Source: a virus. From it: a stretch of 64,000 nucleotides of DNA. The notes under the pieces were generated by a model that saw nothing but the letters and a program-made list of their open reading frames with translations, ran no database searches and had not been told where the DNA came from. The stretch is from positions 48,246 to 112,245 of IMG/VR virus record IMGVR_UViG_3300046314_000148. One strand, written 5' to 3'. Of this stretch, positions 2,622-37,652 are shown one piece after another. The translations under genes were made by a program, and so were the position numbers. Positions within the stretch are counted from its first letter, which is position 1. Each line of letters begins with the position of its first letter.

Positions 2622-2912
2622 ATGGACATATCCAGAGATAAGTGGAAAGACGATGCCAAGTGCATTAAGTTTGACACAAATCTATTCTTCGATACATATG
2701 AAGAAGACCCAGAAATCAGAGCCGATGTAGATGAGATGTGCTTTGGCTGCCCCGTAGCAAGAAAATGTTTTGCTATCGGTGTTTCTCAGAAATCCTGGGG
2801 AGTATGGGGTGGCATATACTTGGAGGATGGCGAAATATCTAAAGAGTTTAACAGACACAAGACAAAGGCTCAGTGGGGTAACACTTGGCAAAAGCTAACC
2901 AATGATAGATAG
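2622..2912 (+). CDS. whiB: WhiB-like iron-sulfur transcription factor
   Basis: Four conserved cysteines (C14, C40, C43, C49; the last three as CFGCPVARKC) would bind a [4Fe-4S] cluster, and the GVWGG turn follows at 60-64. This is the WhiB family signature, found only in actinobacteria and their phages, and it is the best host marker in the window. WhiB proteins work with the primary sigma factor. A phage copy could redirect host transcription or mimic superinfection-exclusion WhiBs such as that of mycobacteriophage TM4. The C-terminal basic tail (79-91) is the usual DNA contact. Confidence 0.93.
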   Translation: MDISRDKWKDDAKCIKFDTNLFFDTYEEDPEIRADVDEMCFGCPVARKCFAIGVSQKSWGVWGGIYLEDGEISKEFNRHKTKAQWGNTWQKLTNDR

Positions 2913-14948: not shown

Positions 14949-15015
14949 TTATAATCCTATCTTATAAAAAGTATAGCATAAGAGACTATGGTACACTTGT
15001 TGTTAGGAGTTCACA

Positions 15016-16944
15016 TTGTCAAGAGTATTAGTATTATCTTCAACCCCAGACCCGTTCTCAGAAAATCATGGGGGTAAGCAGCGACTAGTAAAGTTACTGA
15101 GATCGCTTTCAACCAGGCATTCCGTCACCCTATTATCCCTTAGCTGGGAAGGGCAGGAGTTTCGCAAAGAGATATCCGAAAGACTTATCCACATATCAGT
15201 TGCAGTAGAGCCAGAGGTTATTCGTGCAGCCAGGGGAAGAACGACCCTTAAGAAGCCAAACAACGACACAAGAATTGCATACTTTAAAAGATACTTCAAG
15301 AGCTATAAGGCCAAGCTAAAGGACCTAGCAGAGGTTCACGACATCATTGTTGTAGACCACTATGCAACAGCACCACTAGTTCATTCAGTCAAGACAGACA
15401 TTCCAGTTTTCTATTCCTCTCAGAACTTTGAAACAGACCTTGCTAACCAGGTTTTCCCAAAAAGATCTGAAGATATCCGCATAGTAAATGAAACTGAGAA
15501 AGATATCATAGATCGATCATCTGCCATAGGATACTGTTCCGTAGATGACTTCGAGGCAATGAGGTCTCATTTCATTATTGATAAGCCAGCATATTACATT
15601 CCAAATGGAAATGATATGGTTCCTGGCATATCTGCTGGGGCAGGTCAGAAGTCAAAGAGAATTATCTTTATTGGAAGCGGTCACCCACCAAACATTATTG
15701 CAGCAGAAAGAGTTATAGAGTTGGCAAAGATGGTTCCAGACTATGACTTCGTAATAGCTGGCTCCTGTGTCGGTGGTGTTGACCACCTACCAGCTCCAAA
15801 GAACCTTATTAAGATAAGGGAGATTAGCAATGACGAAGTAGAGGACCTATTCTCTAATGCCTTTGCCTTTATCAACCCAATGAAGTCTGGTTCTGGAACA
15901 CACCTCAAGATGATGAAGGCTCTTAGCTATGGGCTGCCCATCATTTCATCACCAGTAGGGGCTAGAGGATTCTCTCAGGCAGAGAAGGATAGCTGCATGG
16001 TTATCTCTGAAACTCCAGAGGAAATGGTAAAGGCTATAAAGCTTATTACCGATTCTGCAGTATACAACAAGATGTCTGAAAGATCGCTAGAGCTTTCAAA
16101 AGACTACGACTGGAAAAAGATCGGGGAGTCCTTTATCTCTGCGATTGAACAAACGATAGCAAACAAAAGAGAAGGCCTACCCATGATACAGGTTGAAACT
16201 AACAATGATCCAAAGAAGGAAAAGATTCTTCTATATTCGATCATTAGAAATGAAAGTAAATATATAGATTCATACCACAAGAAGCTAAACAATATTGTTA
16301 AGAACTTCCCCAACTATGAATTCTATCTATCTATCTATGAGAACGACTCTACTGATGACACTAAGCAAAAGCTTCAGGGCAAGGACTGGTCATCATTTTC
16401 TCGTGTATCTCTAATCTTAGAGGATGTTCAGACCAAGTTCTATGGCTCAGTCAAGGATGGCGATCGAGTAAAGAACCTGTCAATAGCCAGGAACAAGGCC
16501 ATAGAGGCTGGCGGATTTATCAACGATGTTGACTACGTCATGATGGTAGAGGCTGACGTAGAGTTTGACATGAACACTGTTTCCAGAATCCTCAACTTCA
16601 AGAATGTTGTGCCAGACTTCGACATCGTATCTGGAATAACCATTCGTAATAAGAGATTATATGATCAGTGGGCTACCAGAAAGAAACCAGTCTACGACGA
16701 GGGCATCTATCCAATTGATGACGACTACAAGATGAAGGCTTACGATAGGTACTACTCTACATCTAATGGTATCTGCCTGTACAGGGCCAAGCCATTCCAA
16801 GAGGGCATCCGTTATGGATGGATAAACAATGTCACCAATGAATTTGATTGTGAGATGGTTGTTGTCTGCCAAAGCTTCCATGACAACGGTTACGAGAATG
16901 TCTATATAATCCATGATGCAGAGATATATCACGAACACAAATAG
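15016..16944 (+). CDS. Two-domain glycosyltransferase (GT4-like + GT69/CAP59-like)
   Basis: The first ~380 residues form a GT-B fold: N-terminal SSTPDPFSENHGGKQRL, then IIFIGSGHPPNI and FINPMKSGSGTHLKMMKALSYGLPIISSPVGARGF, where the E/G-rich nucleotide-sugar motif is expected. Residues ~400-642 resemble the alpha-mannosyltransferase family of fungal CAP59/CMT1 (LYSIIRNESKYIDSY, YENDSTDDT, VEADVEFD). A single enzyme may add two sugars in turn. The TTG start is supported by TAGGAG 7 nt upstream; no methionine start fits the conserved N-terminus. Confidence 0.78.
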   Translation: MSRVLVLSSTPDPFSENHGGKQRLVKLLRSLSTRHSVTLLSLSWEGQEFRKEISERLIHISVAVEPEVIRAARGRTTLKKPNNDTRIAYFKRYFKSYKAKLKDLAEVHDIIVVDHYATAPLVHSVKTDIPVFYSSQNFETDLANQVFPKRSEDIRIVNETEKDIIDRSSAIGYCSVDDFEAMRSHFIIDKPAYYIPNGNDMVPGISAGAGQKSKRIIFIGSGHPPNIIAAERVIELAKMVPDYDFVIAGSCVGGVDHLPAPKNLIKIREISNDEVEDLFSNAFAFINPMKSGSGTHLKMMKALSYGLPIISSPVGARGFSQAEKDSCMVISETPEEMVKAIKLITDSAVYNKMSERSLELSKDYDWKKIGESFISAIEQTIANKREGLPMIQVETNNDPKKEKILLYSIIRNESKYIDSYHKKLNNIVKNFPNYEFYLSIYENDSTDDTKQKLQGKDWSSFSRVSLILEDVQTKFYGSVKDGDRVKNLSIARNKAIEAGGFINDVDYVMMVEADVEFDMNTVSRILNFKNVVPDFDIVSGITIRNKRLYDQWATRKKPVYDEGIYPIDDDYKMKAYDRYYSTSNGICLYRAKPFQEGIRYGWINNVTNEFDCEMVVVCQSFHDNGYENVYIIHDAEIYHEHK

Positions 16945-16947
16945 TGC

Positions 16948-16976
16948 TTGACACGTTAATCCACCGATGGTATACT
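16948..16976 (+). promoter_or_regulatory. Promoter TTGACA-N17-TATACT
   Basis: TTGACA 16948-16953 and TATACT 16971-16976 with exactly 17 nt between. It starts just after the stop of the two-domain glycosyltransferase and serves the following small gene and tRNAs. Confidence 0.8.
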
Positions 16977-16993
16977 TTATACAAGGAGAAAAT

Positions 16994-17242
16994 ATGTCTA
17001 AAGAATTTAAAGAAAAAGCACTGAAGTATGTAGAGAACTACAAGCTAAAGCGTCCATGTGTGGGCTGTAACCAGATGCTCCACTCTAGCCAACTAGATCC
17101 AGTTGATGGAACTAATGTAGATGCTATCATCAAGGGCATTACAGATAAAGAAACTTACGAGAAGTCTAAGCTAAAGATTGCCCAGCTCTTGTTTATCTGT
17201 GCAAACTGCAACAGGCTCAAGAAGTTCAAAGAGTCCAGATAG
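16994..17242 (+). CDS. Small four-cysteine (HNH-like) protein
   Basis: CVGCNQML and CANCNRLKKF give two CxxC knuckles as in HNH nucleases, but the central DH pair is missing (LDPVDG instead), so nuclease activity is doubtful. The 82-residue protein starts at the ATG after AAGGAG. It may be a degenerate HNH or zinc-binding adaptor. Confidence 0.6.
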   Translation: MSKEFKEKALKYVENYKLKRPCVGCNQMLHSSQLDPVDGTNVDAIIKGITDKETYEKSKLKIAQLLFICANCNRLKKFKESR

Positions 17243-17248
17243 CAGTAT

Positions 17249-17329
17249 CTCTTGGTGGCGGAATGGTAGACGCACTAGACTTAAAATCTGGGTCCGCAAG
17301 GAGTGTGGGTTCGAGTCCCACCTGAGAGA
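17249..17329 (+). tRNA. tRNA-Leu (TAA)
   Basis: Acceptor CTCTTGG/CTGAGAG, anticodon stem CTAGA/TCTGG, loop CTTAAAA (TAA), class II variable arm, T arm GTGGG-TTCGAGT-CCCAC, discriminator A, followed by a genome-encoded CCA (17330-17332). Confidence 0.93.
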
Positions 17330-17333
17330 CCAC

Positions 17334-17406
17334 CCCTCCATAGCTCAGTGGATAGAGCAAGAGCCTTCTAATCTCTTGGTCGTAGGTTCGATTCCTACTG
17401 GGGGGA
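17334..17406 (+). tRNA. tRNA-Arg (TCT)
   Basis: Acceptor CCCTCCA/TGGGGGG, anticodon arm AGAGC/TCTCT with a C-U mismatch at 31-39, loop CTTCTAA (TCT), T arm GTAGG-TTCGATT-CCTAC, discriminator A. It reads AGA, a codon common in this phage. Confidence 0.9.
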
Positions 17407-17427
17407 CTTATGTTAAAATAGGATACA

Positions 17428-25229: not shown

Positions 25230-25493
25230 TTACTCATCAAGGCTACCGAGCAACTCGTCTAAGTCCTCGAATGTCAAGTCCTCGTAGCCAAGACCAGCAA
25301 GCAATAGGTCAAACGATTCCTCGATAAAGCGAGTAGCAACGGGTGTAGTCTTGACAATGTCGTTTGCGATAGCGTAGGCAAGTGGCAAGCCAATGTCGTT
25401 GTATTCTACAAAGTCAGCAAACTCCTCGTCTTGACGATAGTTGAGCCATAGGTCAGCAAGGATACTTGCCTTGTTATCGAATGTAGTTGCCAT
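25230..25493 (-). CDS. Acidic hypothetical protein
   Basis: The 87-residue protein is strongly acidic at the C-terminus (LTFEDLDELLGSLDE) and helical. Preceded by AAAAGGAAC at the start. Family unknown. Last gene of a two-gene leftward operon. Confidence 0.6.
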   Translation of the reverse strand: MATTFDNKASILADLWLNYRQDEEFADFVEYNDIGLPLAYAIANDIVKTTPVATRFIEESFDLLLAGLGYEDLTFEDLDELLGSLDE

Positions 25494-28277: not shown

Positions 28278-29285
28278 TTATGCCATAGCGACTTGCTGAA
28301 CAATCTTTAGCAGACGGTTCTTCTCGGCGTTCACCATTGGGTCAAAGCCTGAAGCCGAAGCCAAGATAGATTCGTTAGAGCCACCACGAGAGTTGCGATA
28401 CCAGTCAAGACGCTCGGTTAGTCCGTTCAAAGCACCCCAAGCAGTTCCAGCAATCATGCCGTTTTGGTTGCCACGATAGATAGACTGAATCAAGTCAATC
28501 TTGCCGTCATACTTCTTCTGTGAACCCTTAGCGTCCTTAGCAGGGGCAGGGTAGGCAAGGGCAACAATCTCCTCGAACTGACGCTCGGTGATAGTCTTTT
28601 CAATCATAGCCTGTGCCATCTTGTCGAACTCGTCCATGTATTTGTTAGCCAAGCCAAGAGCCTCACGAGCAACGGCAATCTTGCCTTCTGCTGTCTGAGT
28701 GTGGCGAATCTTGAAAGACTGCTTAGGACCTTTTCGGTTAGCACCAAGAGCAAGGTTTAGAGTGTTAGCACATACAACACGAACAGGGGTAATGCTTGCC
28801 TGAATAGCAACTGAACCATCGTGAGAGGTGTTGATTAGCAGATAGGTGTTGATTTTGTCACTAACGCCAGTAGGGTCTAGGATAGTCTCACGCTCAAGAG
28901 CAAGTGAACCGAATACCTGACGACCACCCTTGATAGAGCCAGCAGTCTCCCAGCGTCCTCCGCCATCGAGAATGTTGTCACCAAAAGCAAACAGGTCTTC
29001 GTTCTGAAGCACCTTGTAACGCTCGCCAACAACACCAAGAATGTCGTTCTGGGTCTTGTCGAATGGGTTAGTTCGGGTAACGAAAGAATAGGTCTTGTCT
29101 GAGTTGAAGCCATCAGGGGTAGCAACATCTTCTAGACGAACATTCCAGTTGTCAAGGTGTGCCAACTTTAGCATTTTCTGAGTAGTGACTTCTTCGGTAA
29201 AGACTGTTCCAAGTCCATGCCATGCTGGCTCTCGCAATGAAGCGAAAGCGGTCTGTCCATCTACTGATTCTAGTTCGTGAGCCAT
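28278..29285 (-). CDS. DUF932 / phage-plasmid-like protein (TIGR03299 type)
   Basis: The 335-residue protein starts with WHGLGTVF and carries LGVVGERYKVLQNEDLFAFGD, then FGSLALERE, YLLINTSHDGSVAIQASITPVRVVCANTLNLAL and IRHT. These are the blocks of the DUF932 family found on phages and plasmids. The fold resembles nothing catalytic that I can see. It is the largest gene in the leftward region and probably highly expressed. Its own promoter and shared leader are immediately upstream. Confidence 0.85.
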   Translation of the reverse strand: MAHELESVDGQTAFASLREPAWHGLGTVFTEEVTTQKMLKLAHLDNWNVRLEDVATPDGFNSDKTYSFVTRTNPFDKTQNDILGVVGERYKVLQNEDLFAFGDNILDGGGRWETAGSIKGGRQVFGSLALERETILDPTGVSDKINTYLLINTSHDGSVAIQASITPVRVVCANTLNLALGANRKGPKQSFKIRHTQTAEGKIAVAREALGLANKYMDEFDKMAQAMIEKTITERQFEEIVALAYPAPAKDAKGSQKKYDGKIDLIQSIYRGNQNGMIAGTAWGALNGLTERLDWYRNSRGGSNESILASASGFDPMVNAEKNRLLKIVQQVAMA

Positions 29286-29325: not shown

Positions 29326-29354
29326 ATTTTACAGGATACCACCGACAATGTCAA
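29326..29354 (-). promoter_or_regulatory. Leftward promoter TTGACA-N17-TAAAAT
   Basis: TGTCAA 29349-29354 and ATTTTA 29326-29331 on the plus strand, 17 nt apart. It drives the DUF932 gene. Confidence 0.7.
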
Positions 29355-29477: not shown

Positions 29478-29651
29478 CTATGAAAACATGCGACGTGATT
29501 CTCTCTCGAGCACATCTAGTTTGTCAATTAGCTCCGACAGTAGGTCCCTGTAGTAGCCTGCATCAAAGTTATATTTATGAGACTCAAGATATTCATCATG
29601 CAGTTCAACAGTGTACTGTCTGATTAGTTTATTTAGTTTACTCTTCGTCAT
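29478..29651 (-). CDS. Small helical hypothetical protein (57 aa)
   Basis: A charged amphipathic protein (LIRQYTVELHDEYLESHKY, LLSELIDKLDVLERESRRM), probably a coiled coil. It overlaps the next upstream gene by 14 nt. Unknown. Confidence 0.55.
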   Translation of the reverse strand: MTKSKLNKLIRQYTVELHDEYLESHKYNFDAGYYRDLLSELIDKLDVLERESRRMFS

Positions 29652-29769
29652 CGTGTCCCCAAAAGTTATTAGAGCAGTCTAGGCAAAGGCCTAGTTCTTC
29701 TGCATGGATGTCTGCGTCAACCATTGTTCCACAATCAACGCAAGGTAGTTCACTCGTCTTCTTCGTCAT
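29638..29769 (-). CDS. Zinc-ribbon micro-protein (43 aa)
   Basis: Two CxxC pairs (CVDC and CLDC) separated by 16 residues make a rubredoxin-like knuckle in a 43-residue acidic protein. Overlaps both neighbours. Confidence 0.55.
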   Translation of the reverse strand: MTKKTSELPCVDCGTMVDADIHAEELGLCLDCSNNFWGHDDEE

Positions 29770-29936: not shown

Positions 29937-30065
29937 TTATCCTAACATCATCATCTCGAATTGTAGCCAGTCATCAAACTCATACTGGCAATCATTACAT
30001 AGGGAGTGAACCGAGTCTACTGGGTCATAGTCTAGGGTTTCTTCGCATTGATAGCATTTGTTCAT
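29937..30065 (-). CDS. Zinc-ribbon micro-protein (42 aa)
   Basis: CYQC and CNDC pairs separated by 15 residues, with an acidic C-terminal helix. TAAAGT lies 7 nt upstream of the ATG, the -10 of the TGTCCGA-type promoter. Confidence 0.55.
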   Translation of the reverse strand: MNKCYQCEETLDYDPVDSVHSLCNDCQYEFDDWLQFEMMMLG

Positions 30066-30072
30066 AGTGTCT

Positions 30073-30094
30073 ACTTTAGCATTACCCTCGGACA
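30073..30094 (-). promoter_or_regulatory. TGTCYGA-N9-TANNNT promoter (TAAAGT)
   Basis: TGTCCGA, exactly 9 nt, TAAAGT on the minus strand, following the stop of the gene at 30096. Confidence 0.7.
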
Positions 30095-30095
30095 T

Positions 30096-30281
30096 TTAGC
30101 AACTCCCATCGGTAGGAATCTGCTCTTCTGGCACACCCATCATTCTTAGGACAGACTGGCTTCTGTTGATGAGTCCCTCGAGGTAGTCACCAAACGAATC
30201 GTTGATGTCTAGACCCTCTTTCTCATCGATGAACATAGCGGTATCACTAAGTAGATAGTTGATAATCTCTTCGTTAGTCAT
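30096..30281 (-). CDS. Hypothetical acidic helical protein (61 aa)
   Basis: The ATG at 30281 was preferred to 30326, which would overlap the upstream gene by 41 nt. The product begins MTNEEIINYLLSDTAMF. Function unknown. Confidence 0.55.
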   Translation of the reverse strand: MTNEEIINYLLSDTAMFIDEKEGLDINDSFGDYLEGLINRSQSVLRMMGVPEEQIPTDGSC

Positions 30282-30285
30282 TGCC

Positions 30286-30444
30286 TTAGCCAACTGTTTC
30301 CTCCTCGACCTGAATTGACCAGTCACCGTTAGGCAGCCATTCGTGCTGGGCGATGGCTTGTGAGATTACTTCATCTTCACTTAGTTTCTCATCTGACTCA
30401 ACTTCATACCAAGCAGAGTATTCAATCTCGTAGCGGTATCCCAT
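30286..30444 (-). CDS. Small hypothetical protein (52 aa)
   Basis: The protein has strand YRYEIEYSAWYEVE then helix DEVISQAIAQ and NGDWSIQVEEE. It looks like a small alpha/beta domain. GAGGAGAAC precedes its start and it overlaps the upstream stop by 1 nt. Confidence 0.55.
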   Translation of the reverse strand: MGYRYEIEYSAWYEVESDEKLSEDEVISQAIAQHEWLPNGDWSIQVEEETVG

Positions 30445-30569
30445 TAGTTGTTCTCCTCTTCATACTGGCATAGGCAAGGTGTAACACGGATAAGTCCCCT
30501 GCTTTGGTGAACAAGGGCATAACCCTCGCATGCTTCACAGAAATAGGTTGTGTCTTTGGTCAAGGTCAT
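30444..30569 (-). CDS. Zinc-ribbon micro-protein (41 aa)
   Basis: CEAC and CLC pairs separated by 17 residues. GAAAGGA lies upstream of the ATG. First gene of a five- to six-gene operon driven by the promoter at 30595. Confidence 0.55.
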   Translation of the reverse strand: MTLTKDTTYFCEACEGYALVHQSRGLIRVTPCLCQYEEENN

Positions 30570-30594
30570 AGGGGTTTCCTTTCGTTGTGCTTCC

Positions 30595-30616
30595 ATTATA
30601 GGGGTAGGGTCAGACA
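30595..30616 (-). promoter_or_regulatory. TGTCYGA-N9-TANNNT promoter (TATAAT)
   Basis: Minus strand TGTCTGA, 9 nt, TATAAT, directly after the TAA of the gene ending at 30618. Confidence 0.75.
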
Positions 30617-30617
30617 T

Positions 30618-30818
30618 TTAGTCAAGCCACTTAGAAACATCTTGTCCATTTAGAACTGCTTCCATGAACGGGAACTTCTGGTAGTCTGGTAGGTCTTCCA
30701 AAACCTCAAGGTACTCTTCTGGGAACTCGTTGATGTCGGTAACAATAATGTCATCTCCACCCCAGTTGCCATCACGAGATACGTATAGAGCGTGTGGTGC
30801 AAACTTGGTGTAAGCCAT
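30618..30818 (-). CDS. Hypothetical acidic protein (66 aa)
   Basis: Starts MAYTKFAPHALYVSRDGNWGGDD, ends with an acidic helix region. GGAGAAATC lies before the start. Its promoter is the TGTCCGA-type site at 30845. No known family. Confidence 0.6.
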   Translation of the reverse strand: MAYTKFAPHALYVSRDGNWGGDDIIVTDINEFPEEYLEVLEDLPDYQKFPFMEAVLNGQDVSKWLD

Positions 30819-30844
30819 GATTTCTCCTTTGATTGATTACTATA

Positions 30845-30866
30845 ACTATACAGCTACCCTCGGACA
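30845..30866 (-). promoter_or_regulatory. TGTCYGA-N9-TANNNT promoter (TATAGT)
   Basis: TGTCCGA, 9 nt, TATAGT on the minus strand. Confidence 0.75.
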
Positions 30867-30962
30867 TTATGGGGATTTAATCGGCGTGTCGTAAATAAAA
30901 GTTTTTCTGGCCAGGAGGGGGCGACCCCAGATCACCACAAATGTCAAGCTTGGTTTTTGACA
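30867..30962 (-). promoter_or_regulatory. Leftward boundary module 4
   Basis: ATTATGGGGATTTAA next to N7 and GTCGTAAA (30888-30895), palindrome GGGGGCGACCCC (30917-30928) and hairpin TGTCAA/TTGACA (30942-30962). Confidence 0.6.
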
Positions 30963-31110
30963 GATGCGGTGTGGGGTGCCAAGAGTCCTTGCGGTTGTTC
31001 CTGACTTGCTTCGTTATCGTGTTAGCCCTCACGCTTGTAAGCCGTTGCCTAGGACACTTACAAGAGGTTTGCTGTGAGCAGTTTACCTAGACTTGCTCAG
31101 GTCTTAGTTC
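30963..31110 (-). ncRNA. Structured 150-nt intergenic region
   Basis: No ORF is evident. Two clean inverted repeats are CTTGTAAG (31034-31041)/CTTACAAG (31057-31064) and TGAGCA (31075-31080)/TGCTCA (31094-31099). It follows the gene at 31117 on the leftward transcript, so it is either a long 3' UTR or a small RNA. Confidence 0.35.
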
Positions 31111-31116
31111 ATCTTG

Positions 31117-31566
31117 TTAGATGAGGTCAATAATGGAGGAGTAGGTGCTTGCGTTTACTTCCTCCTGAGTAGTCATACGCAAGATGCGTAGGTTCTGCTC
31201 TAGGACTGCCTTGCGGTTTAGGTGCTTGTTGCCAATCCACTCAGACTGGTTAGGCTTGACTGGTGCTTCAGGTCGTTTAGGGAAGCCAGCAATCTTGTCA
31301 GCATCAAAGTTTAGTTCCATACGACCAGAGTGTCCAAAGTTTAGTCGAATGTCTGAGTTGTAGTCATAGCCAATCTTATTAGCGTTCTTAGCAACAAACT
31401 CTGAAACAAACTTAGCAACCTTCTTCTTGTATGCTTCAGTTTCCTTTTCATACTTCTCAAAGTCAGCAGGGTAGGAAGCGACATCAGCGTCAATCTTAGC
31501 GATAGCAGCCTCAATCTGAGAAATGATAGCGGAGGTAGGAACTTTTACAGAGATAGCACGAGCCAT
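31117..31566 (-). CDS. Hypothetical coiled-coil protein (149 aa)
   Basis: The N-terminal 65 residues are a Lys/Glu coiled coil (IEAAIAKIDADVASYPADFEKYE). A beta-like block (SDIRLNFGHSGRMELNFD) follows. The leader has the shared ACCCC-AAAGAAAG motif. No family is recognised. Confidence 0.6.
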   Translation of the reverse strand: MARAISVKVPTSAIISQIEAAIAKIDADVASYPADFEKYEKETEAYKKKVAKFVSEFVAKNANKIGYDYNSDIRLNFGHSGRMELNFDADKIAGFPKRPEAPVKPNQSEWIGNKHLNRKAVLEQNLRILRMTTQEEVNASTYSSIIDLI

Positions 31567-31592
31567 TAGGGGTATTCTTTCTTTAGGGGTTG

Positions 31593-31650
31593 TTTAGTTA
31601 GTTGGGCAGTTTTTCCAAAAGACATACCCAGGTCTTTATCTCTAACTAAA
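31593..31650 (-). repeat. Inverted repeat between leftward genes
   Basis: TTTAGTTAG (31593-31601) pairs perfectly with CTAACTAAA (31642-31650), enclosing a smaller AGAC/GTCT hairpin. It lies between coding regions and may modulate read-through or RNA processing. Confidence 0.45.
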
Positions 31651-31656
31651 TAGAGT

Positions 31657-31812
31657 TTACTTGTCTGCCTTTACGGTAGACCAACGAGGTGAACCATTCA
31701 CATCAAGACGAACTCGGAACGAGCCGTTCTTGTTTGCTACTACTTCCTGAATAACGCCAGATACCTTTGACTTGGCGGTGGTGAACTGTGAGCCAACAGT
31801 TAGAGTGTTCAT
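31657..31812 (-). CDS. Small beta-rich protein (51 aa)
   Basis: The product has a compact beta pattern (MNTLTVGSQFTTAKSKVSGVI, SFRVRLDVNGSPRWSTV), like a small barrel. Two tandem promoters precede it. Unknown function. Confidence 0.6.
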   Translation of the reverse strand: MNTLTVGSQFTTAKSKVSGVIQEVVANKNGSFRVRLDVNGSPRWSTVKADK

Positions 31813-31877
31813 TTTGCTTCCATTCCGATACGGGTGTATCTGTGTGTTTTGTGATTTACAACTTTTGTTGTATTACT

Positions 31878-31906
31878 ATTATGACAGAAAGAATAGAGAA
31901 TGTCAA
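31878..31906 (-). promoter_or_regulatory. Leftward promoter TTGACA-N17-CATAAT (proximal)
   Basis: TGTCAA 31901-31906 and ATTATG 31878-31883 on the plus strand; 17-nt spacer. Confidence 0.75.
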
Positions 31907-31984
31907 GCACATTTGATAACTAAATGATAACAACATTTCTTTTTTATTCTTCGTGTTTCGTTCTCTGTTCTTCTGTATGTATCT

Positions 31985-32013
31985 ATTATGGGGCATAATG
32001 GTGTGATTGTCAA
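31985..32013 (-). promoter_or_regulatory. Leftward promoter TTGACA-N17-CATAAT (distal)
   Basis: TGTCAA 32008-32013 and ATTATG 31985-31990; 17-nt spacer. It is a second, identical hexamer pair 107 nt upstream of the first. Confidence 0.75.
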
Positions 32014-32049
32014 GTCTAAATGCCCCTTTTTGTTTGTGGGTTTTCACAA

Positions 32050-32134
32050 AATCTGGGGAAAAAGATTGTTCATCTTAAACTTGACAAGACTGATCGTTTG
32101 GGGTCGCCCCCTTTCGGGGGACGTGTCAAACACG
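32050..32134 (-). promoter_or_regulatory. Leftward boundary module 5
   Basis: AATCTGGGGAAAAAG (32050-32064), N7, ATCTTAAA (32072-32079), palindrome GGGGTCGCCCC (32100-32110), hairpin CCCCC-TTTC-GGGGG and a second hairpin CGTGT-CAA-ACACG (32122-32134). Confidence 0.65.
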
Positions 32135-32251
32135 CCAGTCAAAAACAACAGCTAGAATCATCCATGCAACCATTAAAGCAAACGGACCTGCGAATAGGAA
32201 ACATCCCAATAGCATTGGGTCACCGTTTACTTCTTGTTCTTGTTCTGCCAT
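32126..32251 (-). CDS. Small membrane protein (41 aa)
   Basis: One strong hydrophobic helix (LGCFLFAGPFALMVAWMILAVV). It starts inside the upstream gene (25-nt overlap) and its TGA lies within the terminator hairpin. Confidence 0.5.
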   Translation of the reverse strand: MAEQEQEVNGDPMLLGCFLFAGPFALMVAWMILAVVFDWRV

Positions 32252-32376
32252 TTCTCTATTGTCCCTCCAAAGATACCGTCAAAAATCATTAGTACAGCGA
32301 GAATAATCGGGAATAGCAAGTATAACGCAAAAAGGCCTAAGATAGCAAAGATAAATAGCCATAGGATTATTTCCAT
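32227..32376 (-). CDS. Small membrane protein (49 aa)
   Basis: A long hydrophobic stretch (ILWLFIFAILGLFALYLLFP) and a second one (IILAVLMIF) followed by a basic tail. It overlaps the stop of the upstream gene by 1 nt. Confidence 0.5.
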   Translation of the reverse strand: MEIILWLFIFAILGLFALYLLFPIILAVLMIFDGIFGGTIEKWQNKNKK

Positions 32377-32897
32377 TATTGGGCAGACCCCCTAACAACA
32401 ATCCAGATTAGAGCCTGCATTGAGCGTGGCGTCATCCCATACTTAGCTGCAACTGTAGTTACAGCGTCTGCCATAACCTTATACTGGGCTTGAGTAGGTG
32501 ACTTCTTTTCAATACCTAGGGCACGTAACATCCATACGTCAATAACAACGGCATTCTCATTGCCTGCAATAGCACGTGCAAAGGCGTTAGTCTTCTGACC
32601 CTTGAGAGCGTCAAATCCCATAGTGAGAGCATTGTTAGCCATTACGATATTGTTCTTTAGGCAAGTTACTGGTTCCCCTAGTGAGAATTGAATAGCACGT
32701 GCAACATTTACTGACCAACGTTCACGTGGTGAGAATGCCGAGACAACACTTGCCCCGACGTCAAGGGTAGTGTCAAGGTTACGTGCAACCTGTTCTGCAA
32801 TACGTTCAGCGTCAACATACCATTTACTGGCTTGTTCAACCTGACCGAATGTAGCCTTCTTAGCAATATCCGAATAAATCTTTACGTAGTTAGTCAT
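32376..32897 (-). CDS. DUF7178-like phage protein (HhH glycosylase-like)
   Basis: Blocks ASVVSAFSPRERWSVNVARA, KTNAFARAIAGNENAVVIDVWMLRALG and GMTPRSMQALIWIVVRG are shared by a family of phage and bacterial proteins. The W-x-R-A and helix pattern resemble HhH-GPD folds, so a DNA or nucleotide role is possible. 173 residues; leader carries the shared motif. Confidence 0.6.
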   Translation of the reverse strand: MTNYVKIYSDIAKKATFGQVEQASKWYVDAERIAEQVARNLDTTLDVGASVVSAFSPRERWSVNVARAIQFSLGEPVTCLKNNIVMANNALTMGFDALKGQKTNAFARAIAGNENAVVIDVWMLRALGIEKKSPTQAQYKVMADAVTTVAAKYGMTPRSMQALIWIVVRGSAQ

Positions 32898-32930
32898 TGG
32901 GGTATTTCTTTCTCTTGGGGTTGTTAGATT

Positions 32931-32959
32931 AGTTTAGCAAACTTATTAGATAAAGTCAA
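32931..32959 (-). promoter_or_regulatory. Leftward promoter TTGACT-N17-TAAACT
   Basis: AGTCAA 32954-32959 and AGTTTA 32931-32936; it overlaps the stop of the upstream micro-gene. Confidence 0.65.
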
Positions 32960-33068
32960 ACACATCGCCATCGAATCCGCCAATATCTAGATCCGCCATT
33001 AGTTCGCTTGGGCTGATCTCACCCTCGGCCATCATTGCGAATAGTTCCCTTACGTACTCTTCATCCAT
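32946..33068 (-). CDS. Acidic micro-protein (40 aa)
   Basis: Helical acidic peptide (EYVRELFAMMAEGEISPSELMADLDI). Starts at TAATG with its neighbour. Unknown. Confidence 0.5.
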   Translation of the reverse strand: MDEEYVRELFAMMAEGEISPSELMADLDIGGFDGDVFDFI

Positions 33069-33160
33069 TATTTTACCTTATCTAGAATTATCATTAGTTC
33101 TACCAACTGTTCATCAGTTAGTTTATCTATTGCATCATTATTGATTACATTATCAAACAT
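33068..33160 (-). CDS. Micro-protein (30 aa)
   Basis: Short helical peptide (DKLTDEQLVELMIILDKVK) between two TAATG-like junctions. Coupling to both neighbours supports it; length argues caution. Confidence 0.4.
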   Translation of the reverse strand: MFDNVINNDAIDKLTDEQLVELMIILDKVK

Positions 33161-33432
33161 TAGTCTTCCTCTTCCATGCACCATGCGTCTAGGCGGTATG
33201 AATTGATTACATCAATAGCAGATACCTTATCGCTGCCACGGAATGATACGCCATCGGGAAGGGTAATCGTGCGGTTGTAGTCATCTTCCCAGTAAGCGTC
33301 AATTGCTTCAACGGCAGTAGGAATCATGCCTAGTGGAATCGGTGGATAGCAATTGCTTCTAAAGTGCATTGCCAACTGAGTTTCTAGTGTTTCGTTTAGT
33401 CCTGCAATATCCATTGCGGTTGCCATGCCCAT
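33160..33432 (-). CDS. Hypothetical protein (90 aa)
   Basis: Alpha/beta protein starting MGMATAMDIAGLNETLETQL with a Pro-rich centre and acidic end. Its leader has GAAAGG and the shared C-tract motif. Unknown family. Confidence 0.6.
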   Translation of the reverse strand: MGMATAMDIAGLNETLETQLAMHFRSNCYPPIPLGMIPTAVEAIDAYWEDDYNRTITLPDGVSFRGSDKVSAIDVINSYRLDAWCMEEED

Positions 33433-33462
33433 AGTGAGCCTTTCTTTTGGGGTTATAGAATA

Positions 33463-33491
33463 AGTTTACAGGATTAGTTACTCATTGTCAA
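33463..33491 (-). promoter_or_regulatory. Leftward promoter TTGACA-N17-TAAACT
   Basis: TGTCAA 33486-33491 and AGTTTA 33463-33468; the -35 lies within the end of the upstream gene. Confidence 0.7.
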
Positions 33492-33630
33492 GGGCTTTAC
33501 GCAACTTTTCTTGGCGTGTCCCCTTGTATTTTTTAGGCGTGACGACTTGCTTCTTGCCTGCCTTTAGCATATTGTGGAATAAGGCTTGCGACTCAGCCTT
33601 GCGTCTCGCTTCATTTCTTTTACCTAACAT
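33478..33630 (-). CDS. Small basic protein (50 aa)
   Basis: Lys/Arg-rich throughout (KRNEARRKAESQ, KAGKKQVVTPKKYKG), suggesting nucleic-acid binding. Leaderless by position: TAAAGT is 6 nt before the ATG. Confidence 0.55.
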   Translation of the reverse strand: MLGKRNEARRKAESQALFHNMLKAGKKQVVTPKKYKGTRQEKLRKALDNE

Positions 33631-33636
33631 ACTAAA

Positions 33637-33658
33637 ACTTTATCACGAACCTCAGACA
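33637..33658 (-). promoter_or_regulatory. TGTCYGA-N9-TANNNT promoter (TAAAGT)
   Basis: TGTCTGA, 9 nt, TAAAGT on the minus strand. Confidence 0.75.
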
Positions 33659-33667
33659 TTTTGGGGA

Positions 33668-33752
33668 ATTCGGGGAAACTTTCTTAACTATCTTAAACTT
33701 GACAAATAGGGTAAAAAGGGGCGGCCAGATCCAGGAGCCTTTGTCAAGCTCC
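33668..33752 (-). promoter_or_regulatory. Leftward boundary module 6
   Basis: Element with CGGGGAAACTTT, N7 (33683-33689), ATCTTAAA (33690-33697); palindrome GGGGCGGCC (33718-33726); hairpin GGAGC/GCTCC (33734-33752) with TTTGTCAA in the loop. Confidence 0.6.
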
Positions 33753-33767
33753 CAGTCTGGCGTGTCG

Positions 33768-33938
33768 CTAAAGTCCCTTTACGGCATTACGAAAACGAAT
33801 CTCATCAAAGCGAGGATTGTCACTCTTGAACATAGAAACGAAATCGCCAACCATCTTTGTGAATAGGGCAGGGTGGGTCTTGTCGCTTGCGTAGTGTAGA
33901 ATCTTTGCGGTTTCAACATAGTCTTTACGGGTCATCAT
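33768..33938 (-). CDS. Small hypothetical protein (56 aa)
   Basis: Two start codons in tandem (ATGATG). Contains TRKDYVETAKILHYASD, DFVSMFKSDNPRFDEIRFRNAV. Helical. Function unknown; recurrent type in actinophages. Confidence 0.55.
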   Translation of the reverse strand: MMTRKDYVETAKILHYASDKTHPALFTKMVGDFVSMFKSDNPRFDEIRFRNAVKGL

Positions 33939-33940
33939 TA

Positions 33941-34117
33941 TTAGTTACCACGGTTTTCTGCTAGGCGTAGGATAAACTGGGCAGTCTTTAGGTCAACTGC
34001 GGCTGAGGCATAGCCAACCATCGTGGCTAGGGCTAGGTCATTACGGTCACCAAACTCTGCGTTTAGAATAGCAAGAGCCTTGTCCATTAGTTCTAGTGAG
34101 TTCTTTTCCATTTTCAT
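33941..34117 (-). CDS. Hypothetical helical protein (58 aa)
   Basis: The first in-frame ATG (34162) lies inside the TGTCTGA promoter motif, upstream of the -10, so it cannot be the start. The ATG at 34117 follows AGCAGGA. The product is helical (SLELMDKALAILNAEFGD). Function unknown. Confidence 0.6.
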   Translation of the reverse strand: MKMEKNSLELMDKALAILNAEFGDRNDLALATMVGYASAAVDLKTAQFILRLAENRGN

Positions 34118-34139
34118 TTCCTGCTCTTTAGATGTTTTT

Positions 34140-34161
34140 AGTTTAGCAGTAGGGTCAGACA
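34140..34161 (-). promoter_or_regulatory. TGTCYGA-N9-TANNNT promoter (TAAACT)
   Basis: TGTCTGA, 9 nt, TAAACT on the minus strand, right after the stop at 34163. Confidence 0.75.
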
Positions 34162-34162
34162 T

Positions 34163-34294
34163 TTATTTGAATGACTCAACCATTATGATTGGGTATTCCA
34201 GTCCAAACTTGAAAAGGTCACGGGTATCGACAGCGGACACGGTCATTACTCCGTCAAGTAGGAATGTAACCTTTAGCATTTCTGACTTTGGCAT
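34163..34294 (-). CDS. Small hypothetical protein (43 aa)
   Basis: Beta-like (MLKVTFLLDGVMTVSAVDTRDLF). It resembles the product at 35338-35472 in its opening (KVT.LLDG), so these may be paralogues. Unknown function. Confidence 0.5.
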   Translation of the reverse strand: MPKSEMLKVTFLLDGVMTVSAVDTRDLFKFGLEYPIIMVESFK

Positions 34295-34324
34295 TAGTTG
34301 CCCTTTCTTTTTGATTATAGATTT

Positions 34325-34346
34325 ATCTTAGCATGGGGGTCAGACA
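34325..34346 (-). promoter_or_regulatory. TGTCYGA-N9-TANNNT promoter (TAAGAT)
   Basis: TGTCTGA, 9 nt, TAAGAT on the minus strand. Confidence 0.7.
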
Positions 34347-34347
34347 T

Positions 34348-34488
34348 TTAAATAAAGTCTTCGACATCCAAACCAAGATAGACAATGGCTTTTGCTAGAG
34401 GTAGCAGTCCATCAAGTTCATCGCAGTTTGGGCAAACAACTGTGTCGCTAGTGAAAACACCCTCGCAGTATACGCACATCTTGTCCAT
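34348..34488 (-). CDS. Zinc-ribbon micro-protein (46 aa)
   Basis: CVYC and CPNC separated by 11 residues, then a hydrophobic/acidic helix. No ribosome site stands out beyond GGAAAAC. Confidence 0.55.
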   Translation of the reverse strand: MDKMCVYCEGVFTSDTVVCPNCDELDGLLPLAKAIVYLGLDVEDFI

Positions 34489-34515
34489 TTAGTTTTCCTT
34501 TCTTCTGATACTAAA

Positions 34516-34537
34516 AGACTAGCACAAGCCACAGACA
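34516..34537 (-). promoter_or_regulatory. TGTCYGA-N9-TANNNT promoter (TAGTCT)
   Basis: TGTCTGT (last base differs), 9 nt, TAGTCT on the minus strand. Confidence 0.6.
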
Positions 34538-34582
34538 TTTATAGCCAAAACACGACTTTTTTCTTTGTAAGTTTCTACAAGC

Positions 34583-34667
34583 TTTTGGGGGATCTTTTGT
34601 AGACTACGTAAGTTATCCACAGAGTTATCCACAGGGGGCGACCCCGAAGGGGCCGATTTGTCAAATC
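34583..34667 (-). promoter_or_regulatory. Leftward boundary module 7 with two DnaA boxes
   Basis: TTTTGGGGGATCTTT, N7, TACGTAAG (34605-34612), then TTATCCACA twice (34613-34621 and 34625-34633), palindrome GGGGGCGACCCC (34634-34645) with adjoining CCCCGAAGGGG hairpin, and GATTTG-T-CAAATC (34655-34667). Confidence 0.6.
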
Positions 34668-34860
34668 AATCGAATGACCATTGGGAAGCATACATCTCCC
34701 CGATAGCCTCGTCACGAAGGTGGCGGTCTTCCGCCTGTCGCAGATACTCCTTCTGCTCAGGGGTCATGGCTGCGTCAAGGGCAGCCTGCTCCTCCTGCCA
34801 AGCGAGGAAAGCCTCGAACTCAGCCTGGACTTCTTCTTGGGTCATCTCTGATAGAAACAT
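34666..34860 (-). CDS. Acidic helical protein (64 aa)
   Basis: Gln/Glu/Ala-rich helices (EEVQAEFEAFLAWQEEQAALDAAM). The second methionine (MTQEEV) is an alternative start. Unknown role. Confidence 0.6.
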   Translation of the reverse strand: MFLSEMTQEEVQAEFEAFLAWQEEQAALDAAMTPEQKEYLRQAEDRHLRDEAIGEMYASQWSFD

Positions 34861-34883
34861 AGTTTACCTTTCGTTATAAGATA

Positions 34884-34905
34884 AATCTAGCATAGGGGTC
34901 AGACA
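34884..34905 (-). promoter_or_regulatory. TGTCYGA-N9-TANNNT promoter combined with TTGACA
   Basis: TGTCTGA, 9 nt, TAGATT. This copy also has a canonical TTGACA 17 nt before the -10, so both promoter types coincide. Confidence 0.75.
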
Positions 34906-34928
34906 TTGTCAAATCCAACACGCCAACA

Positions 34929-35007
34929 TTCGGGGGGAAGATCTCGATCATCTTAACTTGACAGCTTGGATCTTTTGGGGCCGCCCCTTTCGGGGTAGTT
35001 TGTCAAA
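34929..35007 (-). promoter_or_regulatory. Leftward boundary module 8
   Basis: Element with CGGGGGGAAGAT, N7 (34943-34949), ATCTTAAC (34950-34957); palindrome GGGGCCGCCCC (34977-34987), CCCCTTTCGGGG hairpin and TTTGTCAAA (34999-35007). Confidence 0.6.
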
Positions 35008-35019
35008 TCGGACACGCTG

Positions 35020-35241
35020 TTAGGCTAGAACCTTATCTAGAACCTTGGCAATCTGAGGGTAGAACACTAGGGCAACCGCTAGAGTGATACCAATCTTTAC
35101 ACCAGCAAAGAAAACATTTTCAACGGTATCGCTAGGCTCTGCCCCTGCTAGCAGAATGAACAGATACAGGGCTAGATAAGTGCCAGCAACAACAGGGATA
35201 GCAACAACACCAGCGATTAGGCGACGGATAGCAAACTTCAT
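35020..35241 (-). CDS. Membrane protein with two or three spans (73 aa)
   Basis: Basic N-terminus, helix at about 9-33 (IAGVVAIPVVAGTYLALYLFILLAG), a polar turn, then a second segment at 45-62 (VKIGITLAVALVFYPQI). The size and topology fit a small holin-like or pore protein, but no family is recognised. Confidence 0.55.
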   Translation of the reverse strand: MKFAIRRLIAGVVAIPVVAGTYLALYLFILLAGAEPSDTVENVFFAGVKIGITLAVALVFYPQIAKVLDKVLA

Positions 35242-35245
35242 TGGG

Positions 35246-35338
35246 TTACTCGCTCTCAGGGGTAGTGAATAGGTCAGACGGGTTAGATAGCATTATGTCA
35301 ATCTGATAAATCAGGGTTTCCATTTCTTCGATAGTCAT
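35246..35338 (-). CDS. Micro-protein (30 aa)
   Basis: Acidic helical peptide (MTIEEMETLIYQIDIML). Starts at TAATG with its upstream neighbour. Unknown. Confidence 0.45.
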   Translation of the reverse strand: MTIEEMETLIYQIDIMLSNPSDLFTTPESE

Positions 35339-35472
35339 TAGATAACCTCGAACTCTAGGATTTCGTTAGCAAAGAACTTGTCGCTGTAAAACTTCATTAG
35401 CATTTCAGCGTGGATTGGGTCATAGGATGGGGTGATGATTGAGCCGTCTAGTAGGGTTACTTTGATTGTCAT
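35338..35472 (-). CDS. Small hypothetical protein (44 aa)
   Basis: Opening MTIKVTLLDGSIITPSYDP resembles the product at 34163-34294. Driven by the TGTCTGA-type promoter at 35501. Unknown. Confidence 0.5.
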   Translation of the reverse strand: MTIKVTLLDGSIITPSYDPIHAEMLMKFYSDKFFANEILEFEVI

Positions 35473-35500
35473 TTCTTTTTCCTTTTCTCTTTATGCTATA

Positions 35501-35522
35501 AGTCTAGGGTATGGGTCAGACA
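35501..35522 (-). promoter_or_regulatory. TGTCYGA-N9-TANNNT promoter (TAGACT)
   Basis: TGTCTGA, 9 nt, TAGACT on the minus strand, after the stop at 35527. Confidence 0.75.
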
Positions 35523-35526
35523 ATGT

Positions 35527-35643
35527 CTAGTTAGACACGCCGTATTGTGCTACGCAAGACTCGCAAGCCTTTTCGTTGTTGTAGAGGTTACCCTCGCAGA
35601 TTACACAGTGTCCTGTTGCTACATTTACCTTTAGTGAGTTCAT
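35527..35643 (-). CDS. Zinc-ribbon micro-protein (38 aa)
   Basis: CVIC and CESC pairs separated by 11 residues. GGAG precedes its start. First gene of the leftmost-reading cluster, with the promoter at 35688. Confidence 0.55.
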   Translation of the reverse strand: MNSLKVNVATGHCVICEGNLYNNEKACESCVAQYGVSN

Positions 35644-35687
35644 CTCGAACTCCTTTCTTTTTTATTTCTTTTTCTTTATCTATATAT

Positions 35688-35716
35688 ATTCAAACATACA
35701 TTAGGGGATTTGTCAA
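35688..35716 (-). promoter_or_regulatory. Leftward promoter TTGACA-N17-TTGAAT
   Basis: TGTCAA 35711-35716 and ATTCAA 35688-35693; 17 nt between. It is the rightmost leftward promoter. Confidence 0.6.
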
Positions 35717-35745
35717 GTCTATTTAGGTAAACATTAGGTTAACAA

Positions 35746-35807
35746 CTATCCACAGATCGATCAAGTTATCCACAGGGGGCGACCCTAAAAATAGCTATTT
35801 GTCAAAT
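35746..35807. promoter_or_regulatory. DnaA boxes with palindrome (module 9) at the divergent switch
   Basis: CTATCCACA (35746-35754), TTATCCACA (35766-35774), palindrome GGGGGCGACCC (35775-35785), ATTTGTCAAAT (35797-35807). It sits between the leftward block and the first rightward gene at 35951. The interval 35717-35950 has no gene. Confidence 0.55.
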
Positions 35808-35950
35808 CAGACACACCCATAGGGTCAAGATCCCGTTACAAAAACGTTATAAAAAACTTTTGCGACACGCCGAGGGAAAATTTGACAAATGGTTATTAGT
35901 ATGATTAACTATATATAGATAAAGATAGTTACTAAAAGAAAGGAGCCAAC

Positions 35951-36148
35951 ATGATTGGTTCACTAGAAAAGATGGTTATGTTCCCTAACGCTCAGCGTGG
36001 ATTCTCAGCAGTTATCGTTGAGACAGGAACAATCGCTCAGGCAAGAGAGATTGCTTACAAATGGGTTGCTCAGGGTTGCCCTCTAGGCGAGGGACTAATG
36101 GAATCCTTCCCAGAAATCAAAAGGTTCATTAGAGAACGCAAGTTCTAA
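35951..36148 (+). CDS. Hypothetical protein (65 aa)
   Basis: AAAGGAG precedes the ATG, and TTGACA at about 35881 gives a plausible promoter. The product is an alpha/beta protein (VIVETGTIAQAREIAYKWVAQGCPLGEGLM) with a basic end. Unknown. Confidence 0.6.
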   Translation: MIGSLEKMVMFPNAQRGFSAVIVETGTIAQAREIAYKWVAQGCPLGEGLMESFPEIKRFIRERKF

Positions 36149-36149
36149 A

Positions 36150-36171
36150 TGTCCGAGGTATGAAATACAAT
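36150..36171 (+). promoter_or_regulatory. Rightward TGTCYGA-N9-TANNNT promoter (TACAAT)
   Basis: TGTCCGA 36150-36156, 9 nt, TACAAT 36166-36171. It is the only plus-strand copy and precedes a plus-strand gene, so the motif follows transcription direction. Confidence 0.75.
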
Positions 36172-36196: not shown

Positions 36197-36397
36197 ATGA
36201 AACAGACACTAGGTCAGATTACAGATGAGATTATGAAGGCTGTCAAGGCTTATCACGTTGCGTCAATGGGTAACGACACTCGAGAGATAGCATACGCTCA
36301 AGGCGAGTATCAGCGAATGATTCGTGAACACGGTGCTAAGGCTGTTGATACTGCTGTTCGCTACTACAACGAAAACGTTATCGGAAAGGCTAAGTAA
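36197..36397 (+). CDS. Hypothetical helical protein (66 aa)
   Basis: Contains LGQITDEIMKAVKAYHVASMGND then YAQGEYQRMIREHGAKAVDTAVRYYNENV. AAGGA lies before the start. The reading frame stays open after the TAA (see findings). Unknown. Confidence 0.6.
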   Translation: MKQTLGQITDEIMKAVKAYHVASMGNDTREIAYAQGEYQRMIREHGAKAVDTAVRYYNENVIGKAK

Positions 36398-36987: not shown

Positions 36988-37140
36988 TTAGATCAATCCA
37001 TGCTCTTTGAGCTTGATCATAACAAGTTTAGTAGATATATTTAGCTCGTTAGCGATCTCGCCAACTTCTTTTCCTTGAACCAGGTATGCATTTGTCATCC
37101 AATCAAGGCTATTATGTAACTTTGCGTCTTTATCAGTCAT
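36988..37140 (-). CDS. Small HTH protein
   Basis: The C-terminal half, GKEVGEIANELNISTKLVMIKLKEHGLI, is a classic helix-turn-helix as in sigma-70 region 4-like or phage terminase-small-like proteins. The start at 37140 (MTDKDAKL) is preferred. 50 residues. A DNA-binding regulator is likely. Confidence 0.65.
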   Translation of the reverse strand: MTDKDAKLHNSLDWMTNAYLVQGKEVGEIANELNISTKLVMIKLKEHGLI

Positions 37141-37147
37141 GATTGTC

Positions 37148-37342
37148 CTATCGATTGGTATTAATGATGCCATACTCTAGAAGAGTGTCGTACAGTAGAC
37201 CATTTACGTAGTTCAACTGTTCCTTTTGTGTAATAATCTGCTGCTCTAGCACATCTGATGGTACATTGTGCTGGGCACCCATCTCACGATTCATATTATT
37301 GATAACCTCTGTCATCACATTAACAACTTCATCACGTAGCAT
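37148..37342 (-). CDS. Hypothetical helical protein (64 aa)
   Basis: Charged helix with a Gln-rich stretch (LEQQIITQKEQLNYVNGLL). AAAGGAG precedes the start. Upstream partner of the HTH gene (7 nt apart). Confidence 0.6.
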   Translation of the reverse strand: MLRDEVVNVMTEVINNMNREMGAQHNVPSDVLEQQIITQKEQLNYVNGLLYDTLLEYGIINTNR

Positions 37343-37442: not shown

Positions 37443-37652
37443 TTACCAATTACCTATAGGACAAGAAGCTTGTTTGAGCGTACTCTTAAGTTTCATAAAA
37501 CATCCACACTTACGACATTTGACCAAACGCTTATCCAACCATGGACATTGTCTGCATATATCGAGACGTGCTTCTATTAGTTCTTTATCTGACCTAGGCT
37601 GATTTGGATCAAATAGATCAAAAAACTTGACATCCCCTGGATTTCCTGACAT
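37443..37652 (-). CDS. DUF6171-like four-cysteine protein
   Basis: RLDICRQCPWLDKRLVKCRKCGCFMKLKSTL and ASCPIGNW match a zinc protein common in phages, usually near structural genes. Five or six Cys give a zinc ribbon. Function unknown. Confidence 0.75.
   Translation of the reverse strand: MSGNPGDVKFFDLFDPNQPRSDKELIEARLDICRQCPWLDKRLVKCRKCGCFMKLKSTLKQASCPIGNW

What the first reader, a model, noticed from the sequence alone, without database searches (positions are those of the whole stretch)
30073..36171. A promoter family TGTCYGA-N9-TANNNT with invariant spacing
Ten copies precede small genes (30073, 30595, 30845, 33637, 34140, 34325, 34516, 34884, 35501 on minus; 36150 on plus). TGTCTGA/TGTCCGA is always exactly 9 nt from a -10-like hexamer (TATAAT, TAAAGT, TACAAT, etc.). 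The only plus-strand gene with the motif has it in plus orientation. The box sits nearer the -10 than a normal -35, which suggests an activator or alternative sigma site rather than plain sigma-A.
Basis: seen in the sequence. Interest (0 to 1): 0.85.

Follow-up and report, generated by a model that had tools for sequence, protein, structure and literature searches.

The report
Phage promoters with fixed-distance TGTC box
A large family of uncultured phages, relatives of Streptomyces phages, starts a block of tiny genes from promoters in which a phage-specific DNA box, always exactly 9 bases from the -10 element, mostly takes the place of the usual -35 element, which suggests that these viruses redirect their host's RNA polymerase with a regulator of their own.

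Summary
TGTCYGA-N9-TANNNT occurs 9 times exactly in the window (0.28 expected); the tenth listed copy (34516) is TGTCTGT, and a missed copy (TGTCGGT) lies at 29347-29326. Across 154 related loci the general element is WAAATGTCNGW(CC/GG), usually followed by TGN before the -10. Of 801 distinct boxes found without looking at the -10, 732 have TANNNT exactly 9 nt away, none at 8 and one at 10. An initiator-like TA, and 178 leaderless ATGs, sit at the predicted start 7 nt after the -10. In 13 near-complete genomes nearly all sites form one 3-14 kb block of small genes. The Streptomyces relatives Samisti12 and Wakanda have none, and a strict form matched only 3 contigs in 257 Gb of bacterial and archaeal genomes, all with several sites and so probably viral. 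The box mostly replaces the -35; about 11% keep a TTGACA-like hexamer just before it. No phage sigma factor was found. Best reading: an activator-dependent class using host sigma-A holoenzyme, working like T4 middle promoters but with another box and spacing. The binding protein is not identified: WhiB is universal in the group; the HTH at 36988 heads the block in about a quarter of relatives.

The parts
30073..30094 (-). Box promoter TGTCCGA-N9-TAAAGT; predicted start 30066 coincides with ATG of a 42-aa gene (leaderless)
30595..30616 (-). Box promoter TGTCTGA-N9-TATAAT; predicted start 30588; serves gene 30444-30569
30845..30866 (-). Box promoter TGTCCGA-N9-TATAGT; serves gene 30618-30818
33637..33658 (-). 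Box promoter TGTCTGA-N9-TAAAGT; predicted start 33630 is the ATG of gene 33478-33630 (leaderless)
34140..34161 (-). Box promoter TGTCTGA-N9-TAAACT with TGC extended -10; serves gene 33941-34111
34325..34346 (-). Box promoter TGTCTGA-N9-TAAGAT with TGC extended -10; serves gene 34163-34294
34516..34537 (-). Variant box promoter TGTCTGT-N9-TAGTCT with TGC extended -10; serves gene 34348-34488
34884..34905 (-). Composite promoter TTGACA-A-TGTCTGA-N9-TAGATT (-35 and box together); serves gene 34666-34860
35501..35522 (-). Box promoter TGTCTGA-N9-TAGACT (TAGACA at -35 spacing 17); serves gene 35338-35472
36150..36171 (+). Box promoter TGTCCGA-N9-TACAAT, plus strand; serves gene 36197-36397
29326..29347 (-).
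28278..29285 (-). 335-aa phrog_1221 protein gene at the downstream side of the block; query used to collect relatives
36988..37173 (-). Small HTH protein (61 aa) at the head of the block on the block's strand; candidate regulator in part of the family
37148..37342 (-). 64-aa protein gene directly before the HTH gene; its family lies at the head of the block in 41 related genomes or loci; TTTACT-N17-TATTAT (TG) before it, no box
2622..2912 (+). WhiB-like protein (four Cys, GVWGG); present in all 24 near-complete relatives; candidate sigma-A region 4 partner
33463..33491 (-). Sigma-A-type promoter TTGACA-N17-TAAACT without box, inside the block; serves gene 33160-33432

Best explanation
The element is a phage-specific promoter class read by the host sigma-A RNA polymerase together with a box-binding factor, probably phage-encoded. 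Sigma region 2 (and region 3 at TGN promoters) reads the -10 (inferred from the sequence). The factor binds WAAATGTCNGW(CC/GG) at about -32 to -20, immediately downstream of where sigma region 4 would read a -35, and must touch the polymerase, because its distance to the -10 never changes (contact inferred). Most of these promoters lack a recognisable -35 and would therefore need the factor; composite ones keep TTGACA and could fire both with and without it. The block of tiny genes would thus be switched on as a set once the factor is made from box-less sigma-A promoters, as T4 middle genes are by MotA and AsiA. Shown: architecture, fixed spacing, start-site signals, confinement to one block, near-restriction to viruses. 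Inferred: activation, timing, phage origin of the factor.
For: Fixed gap: 732/801 boxes at 9, 0 at 8, 1 at 10. 1307 distinct sites against 9 in the reversed-sequence control. Start signals at the predicted +1. TGN at 62%; 84% of sites have 3 or more mismatches to TTGACA at spacing 17, whereas many box-less promoters of the same genome are near-consensus TTGACA-N17-TANNNT. Sites cluster in one block in each of 13 genomes with little or nothing elsewhere. None in Samisti12 or Wakanda. Strict motif: 3 hits in 257 Gb of bacterial and archaeal genomes against 120 or more viral stretches; the 3 stretches hold 3, 5 and 2 sites each, as viral pieces would. No sigma region 2 in 13 genomes.
Against: No expression or binding data. 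About 11% of sites keep a good -35 with a near-consensus promoter, which would not obviously need an activator and fits repression too. No protein was found that is universal in box-bearing phages, absent from box-less relatives and DNA-binding. Extended -10 promoters may work without any activator, so the box might modulate rather than activate.
Confidence: 0.6

Rival explanations
1. Operator of a phage repressor. The box lies in the promoter spacer, and a phage protein bound there shuts the block off later in infection or in a superinfecting genome; promoters fire by host sigma-A through the (extended) -10 alone.
For: Composite promoters combine near-consensus -35 and -10 with a conserved box. 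Known actinophage multi-site elements include repressor sites (cluster A stoperators, PMC9283540). An HTH gene heads the block in part of the family.
Against: A repressor does not need a one-base-exact distance to the -10, yet 0 of 801 boxes are at gap 8 and 1 at gap 10, also where no -35 constrains the spacer. Only 37 of 801 have TANNNT solely at other gaps and 32 none within 21 nt. The -35 is missing at most sites.
Confidence: 0.17
2. A host regulator present before infection binds the box, so that the block is the earliest transcribed set and no phage factor is needed.
For: The homologous leftmost region of Streptomyces relatives lies in the terminal repeats (phrog_1221 twice per record), a typical place for early genes.
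Against: The strict motif had only 3 matches in one genome for each of 84,980 bacterial and archaeal species, all in multi-site stretches from MAGs; a host regulator would be expected to have its own promoters. Looser versions in host genomes were not tested and the host is not identified.
Confidence: 0.12
3. The box is a DNA feature read by RNA polymerase itself (sigma-A or lineage-specific RbpA/CarD-like partners), i.e. a strong variant of an extended -10 promoter with no dedicated regulator.
For: Exact spacing and TGN are what direct polymerase contact would give.
Against: Such an element should also occur in host promoters; the strict form was not found there. The box is confined to one block of the phage genome although the phage has many other promoters without it.
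Confidence: 0.09

Closest known systems
T4 middle promoters (MotA box with AsiA, sigma appropriation)
   Same: A phage box replaces the -35 in a promoter that keeps the sigma -10; extended -10 TGN in about half (62% here); tens of promoters for a defined set of genes (PMC2988021).
   Different: Consensus WAAATGTCNGW(CC/GG), not wwwTGCTTtA; gap exactly 9 here against 12 +/- 1; box can coexist with a full TTGACA; no MotA or AsiA match found, though that search had no positive control.
WhiB7/WhiB promoters and WhiA GACAC sites of Actinobacteria
   Same: The phages encode a WhiB-like protein; WhiB-family proteins bind sigma-A region 4; the reverse complement of ATGTC is GACAT, near the WhiA motif GACAC (PMC3781837, PMC10245118).
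   Different: WhiB7 uses an AT-rich site upstream of the -35; the WhiA site has C where most of these have T (A at -1 of the box 85%, G 4%) and no fixed orientation in Streptomyces, while here orientation and distance are fixed.
Actinophage repeated elements: cluster K SAS/ESAS, cluster O 17-bp palindrome, cluster A stoperators
   Same: Many copies of a short element per phage genome.
   Different: SAS elements are tied to translation starts, the cluster O repeats are palindromic and mostly not at promoters, and stoperators are repressor and terminator sites; in what I read none is described as having a fixed distance to a -10.
Stanwilliamsviridae phages of Streptomyces (Samisti12, Wakanda)
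   Same: Homologous portal, capsid protease, replication genes, WhiB; phrog_1221 at 55-56% identity in Samisti12-type phages.
   Different: No box promoter anywhere in the two genomes; Samisti12 shows TTGACA-type promoters.

Membership tests
T4-type middle promoter (MotA/AsiA) | Phage box replaces the -35 while the -10 is kept | tested here: met
   84% of 1307 sites have 3 or more mismatches to TTGACA at spacing 17; 732/801 boxes found without using the -10 have one at gap 9
T4-type middle promoter (MotA/AsiA) | MotA box consensus (a/t)3TGCTTtA | tested here: not met
   Consensus is WAAATGTCNGW(CC/GG) (MotA consensus from PMC2988021)
T4-type middle promoter (MotA/AsiA) | Box 12 +/- 1 bp from the -10 | tested here: not met
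   Gap 9, essentially no variation
T4-type middle promoter (MotA/AsiA) | Phage encodes MotA and AsiA | tested here: inconclusive
   PF09114 and PF09010: 0 of 13 genomes, but no control genome rang either
Alternative (phage) sigma factor promoter | Phage encodes a sigma factor with region 2 | tested here: not met
   PF04542: 0 of 13 at E<=0.1, with 10 of 14 controls positive
Plain sigma-A -35/-10 promoter | TTGACA-like -35 at 16-18 nt | tested here: not met
   Only 220 of 1307 sites have at most one mismatch at any of the three spacings
WhiA/WhiB-dependent promoter | GACAC (GTGTC) site | tested here: not met
   Base before TGTC is A in 85% and G in 4% of TGTCY-type sites
WhiA/WhiB-dependent promoter | WhiB bound to sigma-A region 4 at the promoter | not testable with these tools
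   WhiB gene is universal in the group; binding needs an experiment

The most novel reading that the evidence does not exclude
Actinophage sigma appropriation of a new type: a phage protein, either the universal phage WhiB held on sigma-A region 4 or one of the tiny sigma-region-4-like HTH proteins these phages encode (weak Sigma70_r4_2 matches), takes over upstream promoter recognition and reads a box shifted just downstream of the -35, compatible with a -35 in composite promoters.
Probability: 0.25. Interest if true: 0.85.

Novelty: new variant of a known kind. Interest (0 to 1): 0.62.

Why it matters
In the papers that could be searched I found no description of a phage-specific, box-dependent promoter class in actinophages. 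Here one is defined by more than a thousand natural examples in uncultured phages, with a one-base-exact geometry that predicts contact with RNA polymerase. It gives a concrete test of how phages with no detectable sigma factor redirect actinobacterial transcription, and a possible role for the WhiB proteins that actinophages commonly carry. It also gives start sites and leaderless genes that gene callers miss: the ATG inside the box (ATGTCTGACC...) makes ORFs appear to begin in the promoter.

Tried and rejected
WhiA GACAC site: the key base differs and its orientation is not fixed in Streptomyces. Phage sigma factor: none found (region 4 matches are small HTH proteins, none with a region 2). 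The HTH at 36988 as sole activator: my first search found it in 9 of 26; an iterative profile then gave 13 of 13, but that mixed in a paralogous core HTH that Samisti12 and Wakanda also carry; the near-block HTH alone is in 23 of 89 loci. Search for a protein universal in box-bearing and absent in box-less phages: g054 and g062 come out, neither looks DNA-binding by eye. Fold comparison of the HTH: low-confidence model (mean pLDDT 70), no significant match. Promoter of phrog_1221 as a conserved test case: many relatives keep a composite -35/box promoter, which weakened a pure replacement model. Rfam: nothing in the region.

Full report
Check of the observation. The exact pattern TGTCYGA-N9-TANNNT occurs nine times in the window, 0.28 expected, and nowhere else in the 112,245-base virus record in which the window lies. 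The tenth listed copy has TGTCTGT. An independent weight matrix, built from relatives with the six loci from the contigs closest to the window left out, finds these ten and one more at 29347-29326; the reversed controls give no hit of 10 bits or more. Three isolated hits elsewhere in the record, two of them weak, may be chance.

Relatives. Two proteins of the region, the 335-aa phrog_1221 protein and the 173-aa phrog_3842 protein, gave 154 loci from IMG/VR. The virus is related to the Stanwilliamsviridae of Streptomyces (Samisti12, Wakanda). It encodes a WhiB-like protein, which points to an actinobacterial host; the host itself is not identified. Habitat is not shown by any tool result; that the group is aquatic is my guess.

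What the element is. In the relatives the core is WAAATGTCNGW followed by CC or GG (603 and 521 of 1307 sites; the mixed GC and CG are rare), TGN in 62%, TANNNT, and T-A at the sixth and seventh base after the -10. 1307 distinct sites score above 12 bits against 9 in reversed sequence. These sites are not all independent, since many phages are close relatives and some loci overlap; identical site sequences were counted once. The spacing claim was tested without using the -10 to find boxes: of 801 distinct AWTGTCNGW(CC|GG) boxes, 732 have TANNNT at gap 9, none at 8, one at 10, and 32 have no TANNNT within 21 nt. The start site is supported twice: by the T-A, and by ATG at exactly that base in 178 sites against 1 at the base before and 59 at the base after. 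In the window, 30073 and 33637 are such leaderless cases.

Where it is. In each of 13 near-complete genomes the sites make one block of about 3-14 kb of very small genes, nearly all on one strand, with at most a few isolated sites elsewhere. Samisti12 and Wakanda have none. A strict form of the motif matched three stretches in 257 Gb of bacterial and archaeal genomes and at least 120 in viral contigs. The three stretches hold 3, 5 and 2 sites and are probably viral contigs in metagenome bins, though only one has a detectable protein match to the window's virus.

Relation to the -35. Many box-less promoters of the same virus are near-consensus TTGACA-N17-TANNNT. Box promoters mostly lack this: 60 of 1307 have TTGACA exactly at spacing 17 and 87 more have one mismatch. 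When present, TTGACA ends one base before TGTC, so -35 and box are neighbours, not overlapping alternatives. The promoter of phrog_1221 is such a composite in many relatives. In the block of the window, box-only, composite and sigma-A-only promoters are interleaved.

Who binds it. No sigma region 2 was found in 13 genomes. WhiB is in all 24 near-complete relatives and also in the box-less Streptomyces phages. Its C-terminal part differs between the two groups, but G019 has box promoters with a Samisti-like WhiB. A small HTH protein heads the block, on the block's strand and without box promoters upstream, wherever its near-block family was found (one weak match, L097, overlaps the head). It has a conserved recognition helix [VI]SxKL[VI], but is in only 23 of 89 loci with at least 3 kb upstream. 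The gene before it, a 64-aa protein, heads the block in 41 related genomes or loci, several of them overlapping. In the window the best promoter-like sequence before this pair is TTTACT-N17-TATTAT with TG and no box, as expected if it is made before the block is switched on. The factor therefore remains open.

Mechanism and rivals. A one-base-exact distance to the -10 in hundreds of diverged promoters, most without a -35, is best explained by a box-bound factor that touches the polymerase: an activator. A repressor site would tolerate other positions; composite promoters are the best argument for it. A host factor or direct polymerase reading is disfavoured by the near absence of the strict motif from bacterial genomes. 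The closest working analogue is the T4 middle promoter (PMC2988021, PMC6755090), but consensus and spacing fail, so it works like one without being one.

Limits. All evidence is from sequence. Start sites, timing and binding are predictions. The genomes are metagenomic and may be incomplete. The literature search covered open-licence PubMed Central papers only; the WhiA/WhiB polymerase structure (PNAS 2023) was not held and was not used as evidence.

Noticed in passing
window 34613-34633 and 35766-35774: Three DnaA-box-like TTATCCACA copies, all on the plus strand, in intergenic stretches of the block next to G+C-rich GGGGGCGACCC sequences; possible replication origin region (6 in the window, 0.8 expected).
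   Followed up: partly
window 28268, 30883, 33513, 33759 (+) and 35534, 35864 (-): A second repeated element, GGCGTGTC, with near-copies such as GCGTGTCCGATTTGACA, in or near intergenic stretches of the same region (6, 0.72 expected).
   Followed up: partly
window 29937-30095, 30444-30617, 33941-34162: ORF lists begin these genes at the ATG inside the box (ATGTCTGACC...), so the promoter would be read as coding; the real starts are probably further downstream.
   Followed up: yes
window 25230-25493 (-): An acidic 87-aa protein conserved in 12 of 13 related genomes, encoded downstream of the block in most of them and not found in Samisti12 and Wakanda.
   Followed up: partly
G000 29495-29665 (outside the window, record coordinates): A strongly conserved tiny HTH protein in all box-bearing genomes and in Samisti12 and Wakanda; weak match to sigma-70 region 4.
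   Followed up: partly
L195 (G020:48449-48805) and L222 (G019:29043-29318): A second WhiB-like protein encoded inside the promoter block in some relatives.
   Followed up: no
window 7305-17407: Twelve tRNA genes or tRNA-like predictions, one with an unclear anticodon.
   Followed up: no
window 37443-37652 (-): DUF6171 protein gene next to the head of the block, with homologs in 10 of 12 related genomes.
   Followed up: no
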